DNA of 64,000 nt from Tilletiaria anomala UBC 951 (lineage: Eukaryota; Basidiomycota; Exobasidiomycetes; Georgefischeriales; Tilletiariaceae): the NCBI RefSeq assembly GCF_000711695.1, contig NW_013546956.1, forward strand, positions 37,546-101,545, given 5' to 3'. A program made the translations under genes and the position numbers. Positions within the stretch are counted from its first letter, which is position 1; each line of letters starts with the position of its first letter. Shown one piece after another: positions 36,247-46,201 of this stretch. The notes under the pieces are model-generated. The model ran no database searches. It was not told where the DNA came from and saw only the letters and a list, made by a program, of their open reading frames with translations.

Positions 36247-39200
36247 TTAACTGAAACATCTAATCTTGATTTCGGAGTCATCGCTACCACTGACGATCTT
36301 GTCGTCTCCAAGGGCGACGCAGGTGACTGCAGCACGGTGACCGACGAGCGTGCTTTGACGCAGCACGGTATCTCTATCCCAGATCTTGATTGTCCTGTCG
36401 TGACTCGCACTGACGATCCGGAGCTTATCGCCTTCGACGCTCCAGACACCTTCAACATGGCCAAAGAGTGTTCTGATACACCTCCCGGTGCGCACATCGA
36501 AGATCTTGAGCGTATTGTCCCAGGGACCCGATAGCAGTACCGGGCGAGCCTTCGAGCAAGCTCTCCGGCTGGGAGACTTTGACTTGGAGCGGTTCTTGCT
36601 GCTTTCCGCCTCACCTTCTCCAAAGCCGAACCGAGAGGAAGGCGCATTCTGCGACCGCTGCTCAATCTCGGCTTGCATTGCAGAGAAGCCCCCATCAATG
36701 TCGCTCATCTCAACGTCGTAAGGAGCAGGAGGCACGAGGCCGGCTTGGCTGAGTCATTCTTGCAGTTGCATTAGGCGCGGAGGAATGCCATTCGGAGTAT
36801 CAGCGCCTGCAGCGCGCGCGTCCGCGACAAATTGCTCGCCGTTGGTTTGCATCGCATTGACGCCAGTCATAGTAGTGAAGAATCGGTCCGGAAGGCCTGG
36901 CGCGTTCGTATTGGCGAGTCGGCCGTCCCTGGGCACGTTCGAAGGGTTGTATCCGCATTCAGCACCAGGAGTTGGGTTGGTTACTGCGATATGATCTTCC
37001 GCATCCGTCTCGTCGTCTGGGCGATCAAGATGCCTTCTTCTTGCGGCAGCACCGTCACTCTCTGCACAAAAGTTGGCAAACGACGCTTTTCCCCTTTTGC
37101 AGCTCCACCAGCTGTACCCTTAGAGAGCTTGAGGACGGCATCGTCATCCAGCATAACAAGCTTGATGCTTTGCACCTGCCCGACATGTCCATCGTATGAC
37201 ATGATGCACTCGCTCGTTTGCAAATCCCAAAGGCGGATCGTGCAGTCATCCGACGCAGAGAAGAGGAAAGTTGCTGGAGGCTCTGAAGGTTAACCTGCCT
37301 GCTGATTTACGCTTTTCGGCCCCGACCACGACTGCACAGCATTGATCCAGTCTGCATGGCCTCGAAGCGTGAAGCATTCCCCGGCGCGGAAGTTTCACAC
37401 TTTGATGTCGGAGTCTTGGCTACCAGAAGCCAGGACCTCGTCGTTGAAATGAAGACAGACAATACCCGCGGTATGGCCCTCCAGTGTCCTGATCAGCTCT
37501 CCAGCCCTCCAATTCCAAATCTTCAGCGTTCTGTCCATGCTTCCCGTGATGAGTTTCATCTCGTCGAATTGGAGACATCGAATCCGCCTCGTATGCCCCT
37601 TGAGAACCCGAAGCTTTTGCCCGTCTCCAGGTTCCAGATCCGCACTGTGCGATCGTAGCTGCCGCTGAGGAGGACGAGGAACGATGGGTGCGCTAAATTC
37701 TCGCTGAATTATAGGAACATGATCCCGTTGTGTGCCCATGGAGAGTCCGGACTGAATAGCGCCCGCCTCGCCAGTTGCGCTCGATCATCCAGCGTTCACA
37801 GTAGACCGACTTCCAGGGGCGAGTCATCACTTTGGCCGGTTGTGTGGATGGTTGAAGCGGATAGAGATGCTGGGTTGCTGACTGTTGCTGCTGTGGATTC
37901 TGGGAACTTCATGAGGTGCTGGTGCCTGTGCCAGTACATTGGCGCTTGGCTGGAGGCTGCTGAAAATGTGTTTCTGATGTTGCTGGAGGATAGTTGGAAT
38001 GTGAAGGTGGAGAAGGCGATGGAGGCCGAGAAAGTGAATTGCGCTTCTCGAGCGCAGCTGCGTTCGCTGTCGCTGTGATGCTGCGCTTCAGATTGCCACT
38101 TGTGGCTGTTGTGCCATTCAAGACTTGCGACTGCGATGCTGTGGATTGTGCTGAGGATGATGCGCCCGGCGTAGGAGCAGTAGGCGAGGGTCTCTTTGCA
38201 GCAACAGCTGCATTCGAAGCAGCTGCTCGTCTCCTCTTCTTGTCGTTCAACAAGGGCAAACCCCACCCGCACTTTTCACACTTTCGCTCAATGTGCTGCT
38301 CGCACAATAAATCATCGTCCGCTAGCTCCTTCAAACTTCGACTGGCCTGCGCTGCGCGCCCGAGCGTGATCGCGTCTGTGAAGCCCAGCACGCGGAGGGA
38401 GACCTCGCGGGGGAAGAGGCCGAATGGGTCGATTCGGATCGCTAAAGCTAGTGCGGAGGAGAGTAGGGAGAGCTGCAAGAAGCAGCACATCGTCAAAATC
38501 CCTTGCAGGATCAGGCCGCGGCGCGCGTGTGGTGAGTAGGAGAAGATCGACCATACTGAGTTGACTGCGCGTTGGTCGGCGAGTGGAAGAGATTCGATGT
38601 TCTGTAGGCAACCAAAACGACGTGAGTGTCAGCGCGAGTCGACTAAATGGGTGGATCCAGCGACAATCAATCCCAAAACAGGCAATGAATGGAAAGAAAT
38701 AGAAGAACAAAGATGTAGCGTAACTTCTATGGCAACGGCTGGTGATCAAACCCGAACCGCCGCCTCAAACTGTACGACTTGTGTAGTTCAATATTGCAAG
38801 CGTGACAAGTGGATAAAAATATTTAAGAAAATCCAACACCCGAGGTTCTCTCAAAGAGAGAGAACAAAGGTGACCCATAATAAAGCTTGCGTAGTGAGAT
38901 CCCGGCCAGGGTACCGATTGGAGAATAGAGCGAGCATGATTTGCTCTATCCGCTCATGACGAAGAGGAAGGATCAGGGGACATTCCACAACTCACCGCTT
39001 GAAGCTTTGCTGTCGTGCCTTCATCTGTCATCCTTTGATGTCGTACAAAGAGCTTGCGAGTGGCAGGTGGTACGAGAGGTGTTGTGTGAAGTAAAGAAGA
39101 GGATGGTGTTGCTGCACTGCTGTTGTTTGTGTTGTGTTGTTGTCACTGCTGTTGGCTGAATCTACGCGACCCATCATCGCTGCATCCGCATTCGCTACTT

Positions 39201-39250
39201 GTAGTAGTAGTTGTAGATGTTGTTGTTGCTCATATAGCGAAGATGTTGAA
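36247..39250 (-). pseudogene. MET30/SconB-type F-box and WD40 gene, decayed
   Basis: Reading the minus strand across frames recovers an almost complete Met30-like SCF substrate receptor, which in fungi controls sulfur metabolism and the cell cycle. From 5' to 3': LFVRHQRMTDEGTTAKLQ (about 39020), a 394-nt intron, then NIESLPLADQRAVNSVWSIF. LILQGILTMCCF, the F-box LFPREVSLRVLGFTDAITLG and CEKCGWGLPLLN follow. Next come RPWKSVYCERWMIERNWR and WD repeats such as GSYDRTVRIWNLETG, LITGSMDRTLKIWNW, ASGSQDSDIKV, LFSASDDCTIRLWDLQTS and SASHDRTIKIWDRD. Lesions include TGA at 39143-39145, frameshifts near 38520 and 37640, and TAA at 37709-37711. TGA at 37395-37397 stands where the WD repeat needs Trp, and TGA lies at 36754-36756. 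The F-box lacks a few residues after LADDDLL. Family assignment is confident; the intact parent, if any, is outside the window. Confidence 0.88.
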
Positions 39251-44949: not shown

Positions 44950-45299
44950 AGTTCCCGCGGCCCCATTGACGGGGTACGACAGCCCGCGACAGGCCCTTGT
45001 GAGGTTGTGTAGCGCGCTGAGCGGATGTCCGAATCCCGCAGCATCTTATTTGAATGGCCCTCCAACAAGGGGCGAGAGGAATGTCTTGCTGTTATGTGAA
45101 GCATTGGGAACATCCGAGGCGTAGGGTGATAGCTGCGGTAGTGAGTGTATCCAGCTGCTCGGTAATAGATTTGGGAGGGAGTGTGGTAAGACGTGGATTG
45201 ATTGAAGAGCCGCAGATCCGGAAATGGCGTGAGCGACACAGATGGTGAGAAGCATGTAGAGTGGGACATCTGTCACAGGATGAAAAGTTGGTATTGAGT

Positions 45300-46201
45300 C
45301 AGCATGACCATACTTTCCATCCCAACCGTCAAGCCCTGAATGAACCGCCCAAGCACCAACTCTCTCACGACCTGACTGGCCGCTTGTTCAAAACTCCCTA
45401 ACAAGAAGCAGACGCCCGCGATGATCATGGTTGAACTCCGCCCGAGAGCATCGAAAGCTTCCCTGTGGACAGACTGCCGATGATTGCTACTACTGTTGTT
45501 CCGCTGACGATAAGCTCTTGCTCGCCGGATGAGAGGTCGTGCCCGAGGTCGGATTTAATCGCGACTAGCATTCCTGCGACGACGCCCGTCTGTCAAGAGG
45601 TAGGAAGAGGGAAGTCCAGGAGAGACTTCAGCCAAATAGTCTTGCAGAGATATCTTATCCGTACCAGCGTCCATCACACGCACATCCATTCCGAATTGTA
45701 AGCCGCTCATACAAGCTATTAAAGCTAAGCTGCCAAGGTAAGGCGTATACCAGCATTGTTTTCACCGAGTAAGTCGTCGGGCTCTATATCCTCGTCGATC
45801 TTGCTAGAGTGGCAATCTCGTGCATGACTGTTCGCACCATTATCGTCATCATCATCACGTGTTCCCACATTCCGAAAAGAGGCAGATGGGAGTTGCATGA
45901 CGAGAGGATGATCGGCTTCGTCTTCCTCCTCCAGGTCGTTGTTGTCTTCAGCTTCACGCTGAGCTGCGATGTTCGACTTGCCGCCAAGACGAGTCAGTGG
46001 AATATCCTCAGCAGGAGCAGGAGCAAGGGCAGGTTTCGCAGAGAATTGTCGTGGTGATGCGCTTTGGACTGTTGCAGAGGGAACAAGACGCGCCGCGTTT
46101 TGCGGAAGAGCGAGAACAACAAGAGAAACGCAACTTGACTGGTATCCATCCATTCGCCAACCTTTGGCATCAGTGAGATTGAGACCCTTCGAGGGCTGCA
46201 A
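45300..46201 (-). pseudogene. MFS sugar/myo-inositol transporter pseudogene, truncated after about helix 4
   Basis: The N-terminal piece is a 158-residue frame (45725-46201) with an acidic cytosolic stretch (DNNDLEEEDEADHPLV). A frameshift near 45755 leads into helix 1: YTPYLGSLALIACMSGLQFG, ending FGMD at a GTGCGT donor (45684). The next exon begins at 45599 with TGVVAGMLVAIKSDLGHDLS and EQELIVSGTTVVAIIGSL. A second frameshift follows, then MIIAGVCFLLGSFEQAASQV, VRELVLGRFIQGLTVGMESM. This is the first third of a sugar-porter major facilitator (FGYDTGV motif with Met for Tyr, then the helix 2-3 loop and helix 4). Helices 5-12 are not found. Sugar porter is sure; inositol versus another substrate is a guess. 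Confidence 0.8.

What the first reader, a model, noticed from the sequence alone, without database searches (positions are those of the whole stretch)
36247..46201. A 10-kb graveyard of five decayed genes between intact housekeeping genes
Between intact JAC1 and an intact STN1-like gene, everything recognisable is broken. The set is a Met30-type F-box/WD40 gene, a Crypton recombinase fragment, NAD+ synthetase, ceramide synthase and an MFS transporter. NAD+ synthetase, ceramide synthase and Met30-type functions are normally indispensable, so intact copies presumably exist elsewhere. That makes this look like a duplicated or translocated segment that then lost selection. The alternation with perfectly intact neighbours is sharp.
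Basis: partly seen in the sequence, partly recalled or inferred. Interest (0 to 1): 0.8.

Follow-up and report, generated by a model that had tools for sequence, protein, structure and literature searches.

The report
Patchwork of decayed duplicate housekeeping genes
A 10-kb stretch of the yeast-like fungus Tilletiaria anomala holds broken second copies of genes that have working relatives elsewhere in its genome; these copies diverged long ago while still working and broke recently, which fits a block of DNA from a related fungus, or an ancient duplicate, that became redundant.

Summary
The window lies in Tilletiaria anomala UBC 951. The three genes aligned carry 9 stops and 17 frameshifts in 2038 codons. 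Intact copies of these three sit on contigs C29 and C91; an open transporter relative sits on C102.

It is not a recent duplication. Synonymous differences are saturated (pS 0.73-0.81) while pN is 0.18-0.29, some intron positions differ, and the NADS and MET30 trees put the split near the base of the T. anomala clade. Decay is recent (58 of 1208 constrained sites changed) and of similar degree in the three genes. The pieces are not collinear with the intact loci, and one junction fuses two genes inside exons.

Best reading, about 0.5: a redundant block from a related lineage, decaying in place. Main rival: an ancient duplicate that worked for long and was then lost as a whole. No donor genome or empty site could be examined.

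The parts
34772..35874 (-). JAC1/HSCB-like gene, intact-looking left neighbour (DnaJ and HSCB_C domains in two overlapping ORFs)
   Evidence: DnaJ E 1.2e-6, HSCB_C E 2.6e-18
35977..36177 (+). Histone-deacetylase scrap (C-terminal part only); next to and convergent with MET30 here and on C29
   Evidence: tblastn 36% over 75 aa, E 4.2e-9 and 4.2e-8, to C29:103554-103778; the C29 exon has Hist_deacetyl E 4.8e-12
36245..39116 (-). MET30-type F-box/WD40 pseudogene: 5 stops and 7 frameshifts over 882 aligned codons (residues 168-1129); keeps the intron at residue 298
   Evidence: intact copy on C29, about 99.5-103.4 kb (P0241)
40634..41083 (+). NDC10_II (Crypton-like tyrosine recombinase type) fragment, the only match to that family found in the genome; lies between the MET30 and NADS blocks
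41312..43642 (+). Glutamine-dependent NAD+ synthetase pseudogene: first 67 residues missing, 2 stops, 6 frameshifts; intron at residue 225 not in C91, lacks C91 introns near 185 and 381, shares the one at 725
   Evidence: intact copy on C91, about 67.7-70.2 kb (P0001)
43835..45302 (-). Ceramide synthase (LAG1) pseudogene: 2 stops, 4 frameshifts; shares introns at 255 and 322, lacks the C91 intron at 225; by my longer gene model the first exon is missing
   Evidence: intact copy on C91, about 75.0-76.9 kb (P0121)
45295..45305 (.). Illegitimate junction: an exon of the transporter runs directly into LAG1 coding sequence; homology to C102 and to C91 meets with no gap
45298..45779 (-). Sugar-transporter (MFS) pseudogene, N-terminal third only, matches in separate short reading frames
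   Evidence: Sugar_tr E 1.7e-7; 64% DNA identity to C102:35194-35669 and three tblastn matches
46364..47644 (+). STN1-like gene, open right neighbour (426-aa ORF), divergent from JAC1
   Evidence: PDB match to human STN1 E 0.0085 over 27 residues; no Pfam match at E 0.1

Best explanation
The stretch is a patchwork of xenologous or homeologous DNA. A second set of working genes (HDAC, MET30, NADS, LAG1, a sugar transporter) from a lineage close to T. anomala, most likely another Georgefischeriales fungus, reached this genome by introgression, hybridisation or transfer and came to lie between the divergently transcribed JAC1 and STN1-like genes. It was redundant with the genes on C29, C91 and C102, so selection on it relaxed as a whole, and stops, frameshifts, truncations and a fusion accumulated. 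Shown: the genes are broken; working relatives exist; divergence was mostly under constraint; decay is recent and of similar degree in three genes; one illegitimate join. Inferred: foreign origin, single arrival, and insertion between JAC1 and STN1.
For: Divergence under constraint: pS 0.796, 0.805, 0.732 against pN 0.175, 0.292, 0.252 for NADS, LAG1 and MET30; a copy free of selection since duplication would show pN near pS. Similar, recent decay: lesions 8 in 691, 6 in 465 and 12 in 882 codons, 0.012-0.014 per codon. Changed nondegenerate sites at near-invariant residues 32/621, 6/179 and 20/408, in all 58/1208 or 4.8%, against a synonymous distance beyond estimation in two genes and about 2.8 in the third. 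Near-invariant residues altered: window 31/328, 10/96, 12/207; intact copies 7/328, 6/96, 3/207; the contrast is weak for LAG1. Depth: NADS and MET30 window copies fall inside the T. anomala clade (100/100), near its base. In the joined tree the split from the own copy comes just after that from an unnamed relative (own+window 86/80; own+unnamed p-AU 0.041; unnamed+window p-AU 0.215). LAG1 groups with the own copy (99/95), but no nearer relative was available there. Intron positions differ in NADS and LAG1. Gene order: MET30 beside NADS is not the order of the intact loci, nor usual in relatives. So the intact copies keep the usual linkage and the patchwork is derived. Second copies seem confined to this block: 10-kb stretches around the intact NADS and MET30 match only C66 and a place on C84 (2 of 3 and 1 of 2 candidates scored). 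Window 46301-64000 has no comparable duplicate, and window pieces outside the block have no match on C91 or the C29 part at E 1e-4.
Against: No donor genome and no empty site were examined, so foreign origin is not shown. NADS, LAG1 and the joined tree put the window copies nearest the T. anomala copies, as an old duplicate would be. GC3 of the window copies (0.58-0.63) is typical for this genome (mean 0.635, sd 0.074, 47 ORFs), so composition gives no foreign signal; it is the intact copies (0.72-0.77) that are high. None of four other low-coding stretches tested showed broken second copies of genes, so a genome-wide hybrid past is not supported, on a very small sample. The DNA search is not very sensitive: it missed the C102 relative, so absence of duplicates in the flanks is not firm. 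MET30 lying near NADS needs a rearranged donor or several pieces.
Confidence: 0.5

Rival explanations
1. Ancient duplication within the T. anomala lineage: the block arose by duplication soon after the split from its nearest sampled relative, both copies stayed functional for most of the time since, and the second copy then lost selection as a whole, for example by silencing of the region.
For: Window copies group with the own intact copies for NADS (72/19), LAG1 (99/95) and the joined set (86/80); GC3 is like the host; DNA-level copies that keep some introns.
Against: Needs long joint retention of second copies of several unrelated housekeeping genes and then loss at a similar time. The flanks show no duplication in the searches made. 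The intact genes lie on three contigs in another order. MET30 alone groups with the unnamed relatives (85/79).
Confidence: 0.3
2. The patchwork is the older resident set, and the intact genes on C29, C91 and C102 are the newcomers that replaced it.
For: The intact copies are the ones with unusual GC3 (0.72-0.77 against a host mean of 0.635).
Confidence: 0.07
3. Relic of an alternative, non-recombining haplotype, such as the other mating-type haplotype, which came together with the first one when T. anomala became homothallic; one set then decayed.
For: Would explain old divergence under constraint, rearranged order and sudden joint redundancy. T. anomala is homothallic (PMC4056295, whole text), and its bW or bE protein is reported truncated (PMC7766764, section 3.3 read).
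Against: A loose homeodomain pattern gave 4 matches in the 279 kb of C66, C91 and C29 held plus 8 kb of C102; none looks like a homeodomain by eye. The first 50 kb and last 17 kb of C29 and most of C102 were not read, and no receptor search was made. The genes here are not among the MAT neighbours named in that section.
Confidence: 0.06
4. Artefact: sequencing errors, contamination by a relative, or a wrong join.
For: Draft Illumina assembly, 202 contigs as held; reads could not be inspected.
Against: 26 lesions and about 5% changed constrained sites in three genes while neighbours are open; 25x Illumina and virtually no detectable polymorphism. Contaminating genes would be expected to be intact.
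Confidence: 0.05
5. Duplicates killed by repeat-induced point mutation (RIP).
For: Duplicated DNA in a fungus.
Against: Only 16 of 58 decay changes are C to T or G to A; much of the damage is frameshifts; the intact copies are open.
Confidence: 0.02

Closest known systems
Unprocessed duplicated pseudogenes
   Same: DNA-level second copies, with some introns kept, broken by stops, frameshifts and truncations, while intact copies exist elsewhere
   Different: As I recall, most duplicated pseudogenes start to decay near the time of duplication; here divergence is overwhelmingly synonymous and saturated, so decay began late
Introgressed or hybrid-derived segments with loss of redundant homeologues (known from yeasts; recalled, papers seen only as listings)
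   Same: Diverged working genes from a relative become redundant beside resident copies and are lost together
   Different: No donor or empty site seen here; divergence is about that to the nearest sampled relative, and the block is small and rearranged
Crypton / NDC10-type tyrosine recombinase elements and Starship cargo elements (recalled; PMC11623301 seen only as a listing with the start of its abstract)
   Same: An NDC10_II recombinase-type fragment lies in the block, upstream of the NADS, LAG1 and transporter pieces
   Different: Single, partial and broken; direct repeats at the borders no better than chance; NDC10_II is not the Starship captain domain as I recall it

Membership tests
Pseudogene | Several independent disabling lesions compared with an intact homologue | tested here: met
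   26 lesions in 2038 codons of NADS, LAG1 and MET30; intact copies 0 stops and 1 doubtful step in 2418 codons
Pseudogene | Loss of constraint at residues conserved in the family | tested here: met
   Near-invariant residues altered 31/328, 10/96, 12/207 against 7, 6 and 3 in the intact copies; clear for NADS and MET30, weak for LAG1
Processed (retro) pseudogene | Introns removed | tested here: not met
   Introns kept at NADS 725, LAG1 255 and 322, MET30 298
Recent segmental duplication | High DNA identity and the same gene order and introns as the source | tested here: not met
   60-65% DNA identity in the main blocks, three source contigs, different order and introns
Introgressed or xenologous segment | Gene trees that join the segment to another lineage | tested here: inconclusive
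   NADS and joined tree favour own+window (72/19; 86/80), MET30 favours unnamed+window (85/79); unnamed+window not rejected, p-AU 0.215
Introgressed or xenologous segment | Donor genome with the genes in this order, or an empty site in relatives | not testable with these tools
   No fungal genome collection was available to search; relatives were seen only as proteins
RIP-inactivated duplicate | Changes dominated by C:G to T:A | tested here: not met
   16 of 58
Crypton or other cargo-bearing recombinase element | Recombinase-type domain inside the block | tested here: met
   NDC10_II fragment, E 1.9e-7, partial and broken
Crypton or other cargo-bearing recombinase element | Direct repeats at the ends | tested here: inconclusive
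   One 12-bp direct repeat (40603 and 45977) and one 11-bp (36139 and 46112) between border zones; 486 of 1000 random zone sets also share a 12-mer
Crypton or other cargo-bearing recombinase element | Further copies in the genome | tested here: not met
   One match to PF16787 in the genome

The most novel reading that the evidence does not exclude
The block is foreign cargo caught in decay: a set of essential genes from another Georgefischeriales lineage, joined from several places and brought in by hybridisation or with a tyrosine-recombinase (NDC10/Crypton-type) element, so that at the time of arrival T. anomala carried two working, long-diverged versions of NAD+ synthetase, ceramide synthase and Met30.
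Probability: 0.12. Interest if true: 0.75.

Novelty: new member of a known kind. Interest (0 to 1): 0.42.

Why it matters
It separates two times that are usually confounded: when a gene copy arose and when it died. Here the copies arose about as long ago as the split from the nearest sampled relative and died recently, at about the same time. If the block proves foreign, it is a sign of gene exchange in a fungal order for which one search of an open-access library (Georgefischeriales, genome, hybrid) listed two papers, neither about that by title and abstract start. It would also offer natural pairs of essential-gene versions, one retained and one discarded. And it is a caution: "duplicated, then decayed" cannot be inferred from the presence of intact copies alone.

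Tried and rejected
Rejected: recent duplication (saturated synonymous change); retrocopies (introns kept); RIP (16 of 58 changes); an abundant transposon (one match to NDC10_II in the genome). GC3 as a sign of foreign origin failed: the window copies are ordinary for the host. A loose homeodomain pattern gave 4 matches, none convincing by eye. Direct repeats between border zones (one 12-mer, one 11-mer) are at chance level: 486 of 1000 random zone sets share a 12-mer.

Led nowhere or incomplete: the DNA search with window 16001-35900 had candidates but could not be scored, so that flank was compared only with C91 and part of C29. Control low-coding stretches: C29:73501-79900 no other match; C91:12001-18300 only a dispersed element of about 230 bp; window 12301-18500 one 58-bp match; C66:701-7000 dispersed repeats. 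These are 4 of the 18 lowest-coding stretches listed for the 279 kb held, not a genome survey. In one search, 3 of 4 first-look candidates were scored.

Choices behind the counts: one search used 118 of the 119 other NADS proteins listed (P0009, an over-long one, dropped), the first 29 of 119 others for LAG1 and the first 64 of 119 others for MET30. Trees used 21, 24 and 26 of the 120 listed proteins plus the window copy. The joined tree has 12 rows and only columns filled in own, unnamed and window; it treats P0002 and P0242 as one lineage, and the row called Sreil uses P0252, whose species the listing does not show. The codon alignments use my own script, guided by the own intact proteins, so the window copies may lean slightly towards them; intron phases are approximate, and a second MET30 intron that it placed at residue 267 is uncertain.
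Full report
What was checked. The window is contig C66:37546-101545 of an 18.41-Mb assembly held in 202 contigs. A protein read from contig C91 matches, at 100% and on a contig of the same length, a protein named as Tilletiaria anomala UBC 951. That genome was sequenced by Illumina at 25x, is given as 18.7 Mb with under 1% repeats and virtually no detectable polymorphism, and belongs to a homothallic fungus known from one strain isolated from decayed wood (PMC4056295, whole text read).

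The block. Six pieces lie between JAC1 (-) and an STN1-like gene (+): a histone-deacetylase scrap (35977-36177), MET30 (36245-39116), an NDC10_II fragment (40634-41083), NADS (41312-43642), LAG1 (43835-45302) and a sugar transporter (45298-45779). A codon-aware alignment to the intact proteins gives 2 stops and 6 frameshifts in 691 codons (NADS), 2 and 4 in 465 (LAG1), and 5 and 7 in 882 (MET30). As a control, the three intact genes gave 0 stops and 1 frameshift-like step in 2418 codons; that step is in NADS, where the script's intron model is approximate.

Relatives in the genome. The intact MET30 is on C29 with a histone-deacetylase gene next to it, convergent as in the window (I did not check that whole gene for openness). 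NADS and LAG1 are intact on C91, with an ELMO-like gene (my reading of the translation, not tested) between them and a different relative orientation. The transporter relative is on C102; its exons are open, and their best matches to Sugar_tr run from position 45 to 452 of 452 with gaps between them. Searches with 10 kb around the intact NADS and the intact MET30 return only the C66 block and one place on C84 that matches the neighbouring thiolase-like gene (2 of 3 and 1 of 2 candidates scored; the thiolase label is my reading).

Age of the copies. Between window and intact copies pS is 0.796, 0.805 and 0.732 and pN 0.175, 0.292 and 0.252 (NADS, LAG1, MET30). The synonymous distance is beyond measurement for two genes and about 2.8 for the third. 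Intron positions differ: the window NADS has an intron at residue 225 that C91 lacks, and lacks two that C91 has; the window LAG1 lacks one of three; MET30 shares its intron at 298. Trees place the window copies with T. anomala: 100/100 with the own copy and P0002 for NADS; 100/100 with the own copy, P0242 and P0243 for MET30; 99/95 with the own copy for LAG1, where no nearer relative was at hand. The order inside the clade is not settled: NADS own+window 72/19, MET30 window with the unnamed relatives 85/79, joined own+window 86/80; own+unnamed p-AU 0.041, unnamed+window p-AU 0.215. The joined tree assumes that P0002 and P0242 come from one lineage, which I could not check.

Age of the decay. 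At residues near-invariant in the families (118, 29 and 64 other proteins), 31 of 328, 10 of 96 and 12 of 207 are altered in the window copies, against 7, 6 and 3 in the intact copies; for LAG1 this contrast is weak. Of the nondegenerate sites in such codons 32 of 621, 6 of 179 and 20 of 408 are changed, together 4.8%. Lesion densities are alike, 0.0116, 0.0129 and 0.0136 per codon. So the genes worked for most of their separate history and stopped working recently, at about the same time. If nondegenerate sites now change at the synonymous rate, the decay covers less than about a tenth of that history; this is an inference from saturated distances.

Anatomy. NADS lacks its first 67 residues and the transporter all but its N-terminal third; the deacetylase is only a C-terminal scrap. 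LAG1 covers residues 2-488 of the annotated protein; by my longer gene model it lacks a first exon that the annotation does not include. Homology to C102 and to C91 meets at 45298-45302 without a gap, and the sequences show that the join lies inside coding sequence of each gene. This is a scar of deletion or of end joining. The NDC10_II fragment lies in the unmatched stretch between the MET30 and NADS pieces and is the only match to its family found in the genome. A 12-bp direct repeat at 40603 and 45977 would suit an element's ends, but random zone sets share a 12-mer in 486 of 1000 cases.

Linkage in relatives. The protein tables list the longest contig for each protein cluster. MET30 has another length than NADS or LAG1 in J. 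rosea, P. flocculosa, Testicularia cyperi, Violaceomyces palustris, Pseudozyma hubeiensis, Moesziomyces antarcticus, Ceraceosorus guamensis and Parajaminaea phylloscopi, and the same as NADS in E. rhododendri: 8 of 9. I left Tilletia species and Sporisorium graminicola out of this second count, for fragmentary or mixed assemblies. Equal length is a proxy for the same contig, clusters may mix strains, and small contigs (V. palustris) say little. The intact T. anomala loci follow the usual pattern; the block does not.

Mechanism. The most likely course is arrival of a working but redundant second set, then joint decay. Redundancy explains how indispensable functions could be lost without harm. 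What is shown: brokenness, working relatives, long constraint, recent decay of similar degree, an illegitimate join. What is inferred: arrival from another lineage, one event, insertion between JAC1 and STN1. The old-duplication rival fits the sequence data nearly as well and is disfavoured mainly because it needs long joint retention and then joint loss, and because the flanks showed no duplication in the searches made.

Results against my reading. GC3 of the window copies is ordinary for this genome and that of the intact copies is high. The joined tree favours the own copy as nearest kin. Four other low-coding stretches showed no broken gene copies. The DNA search missed the C102 relative, so its negatives are soft. 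A survey of random stretches was not possible.

Literature. I found no description of this block: searches for T. anomala with mating, pseudogene and gene duplication, and for Georgefischeriales with genome and hybrid returned 2, 1, 3 and 2 papers, none about it by title and abstract start; passages were read in PMC7766764 (and its section 3.3 in full), PMC11687029 and PMC12510652. Most subscription journals are not in that library.

Verdict. It is an instructive case of late, joint loss of old second gene copies, a known kind of thing, with an open question of origin that one or two related genomes would settle.

Noticed in passing
L014:701-7000 (C66:701-7000, left of the window): Dispersed repeats, 52 matches besides the query itself at 66-91% identity over the genome (40 of 42 candidates scored), probably old transposon relics, although the genome paper states under 1% repeats.
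   Followed up: partly
L019:about 3600-3850 (C91:13.6-13.85 kb): An element of about 230 bp found at 30 other places in the genome at 67-81% identity; nature unknown.
   Followed up: no
window 63757-64000: The last 244 bases of the contig are 95% identical to C180:18488-18731, so the contig ends in a repeat.
   Followed up: no
window 24917-30913: Nup98 (with the autopeptidase domain) and Nup96 lie in two successive ORFs rather than one; an intron or truly separate genes.
   Followed up: no
window 12301-18500: A low-coding stretch without matches elsewhere in the genome apart from one 58-bp match; not explained.
   Followed up: partly
L028:3501-9900 (C29:73501-79900): Holds the lowest-coding 5-kb stretch in the 279 kb held; no other match in the genome; not explained.
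   Followed up: partly
intact NADS and LAG1 (C91) and MET30 (C29): The intact copies have clearly higher GC3 (0.72-0.77) than the mean of 47 long ORFs (0.635); cause unknown.
   Followed up: no
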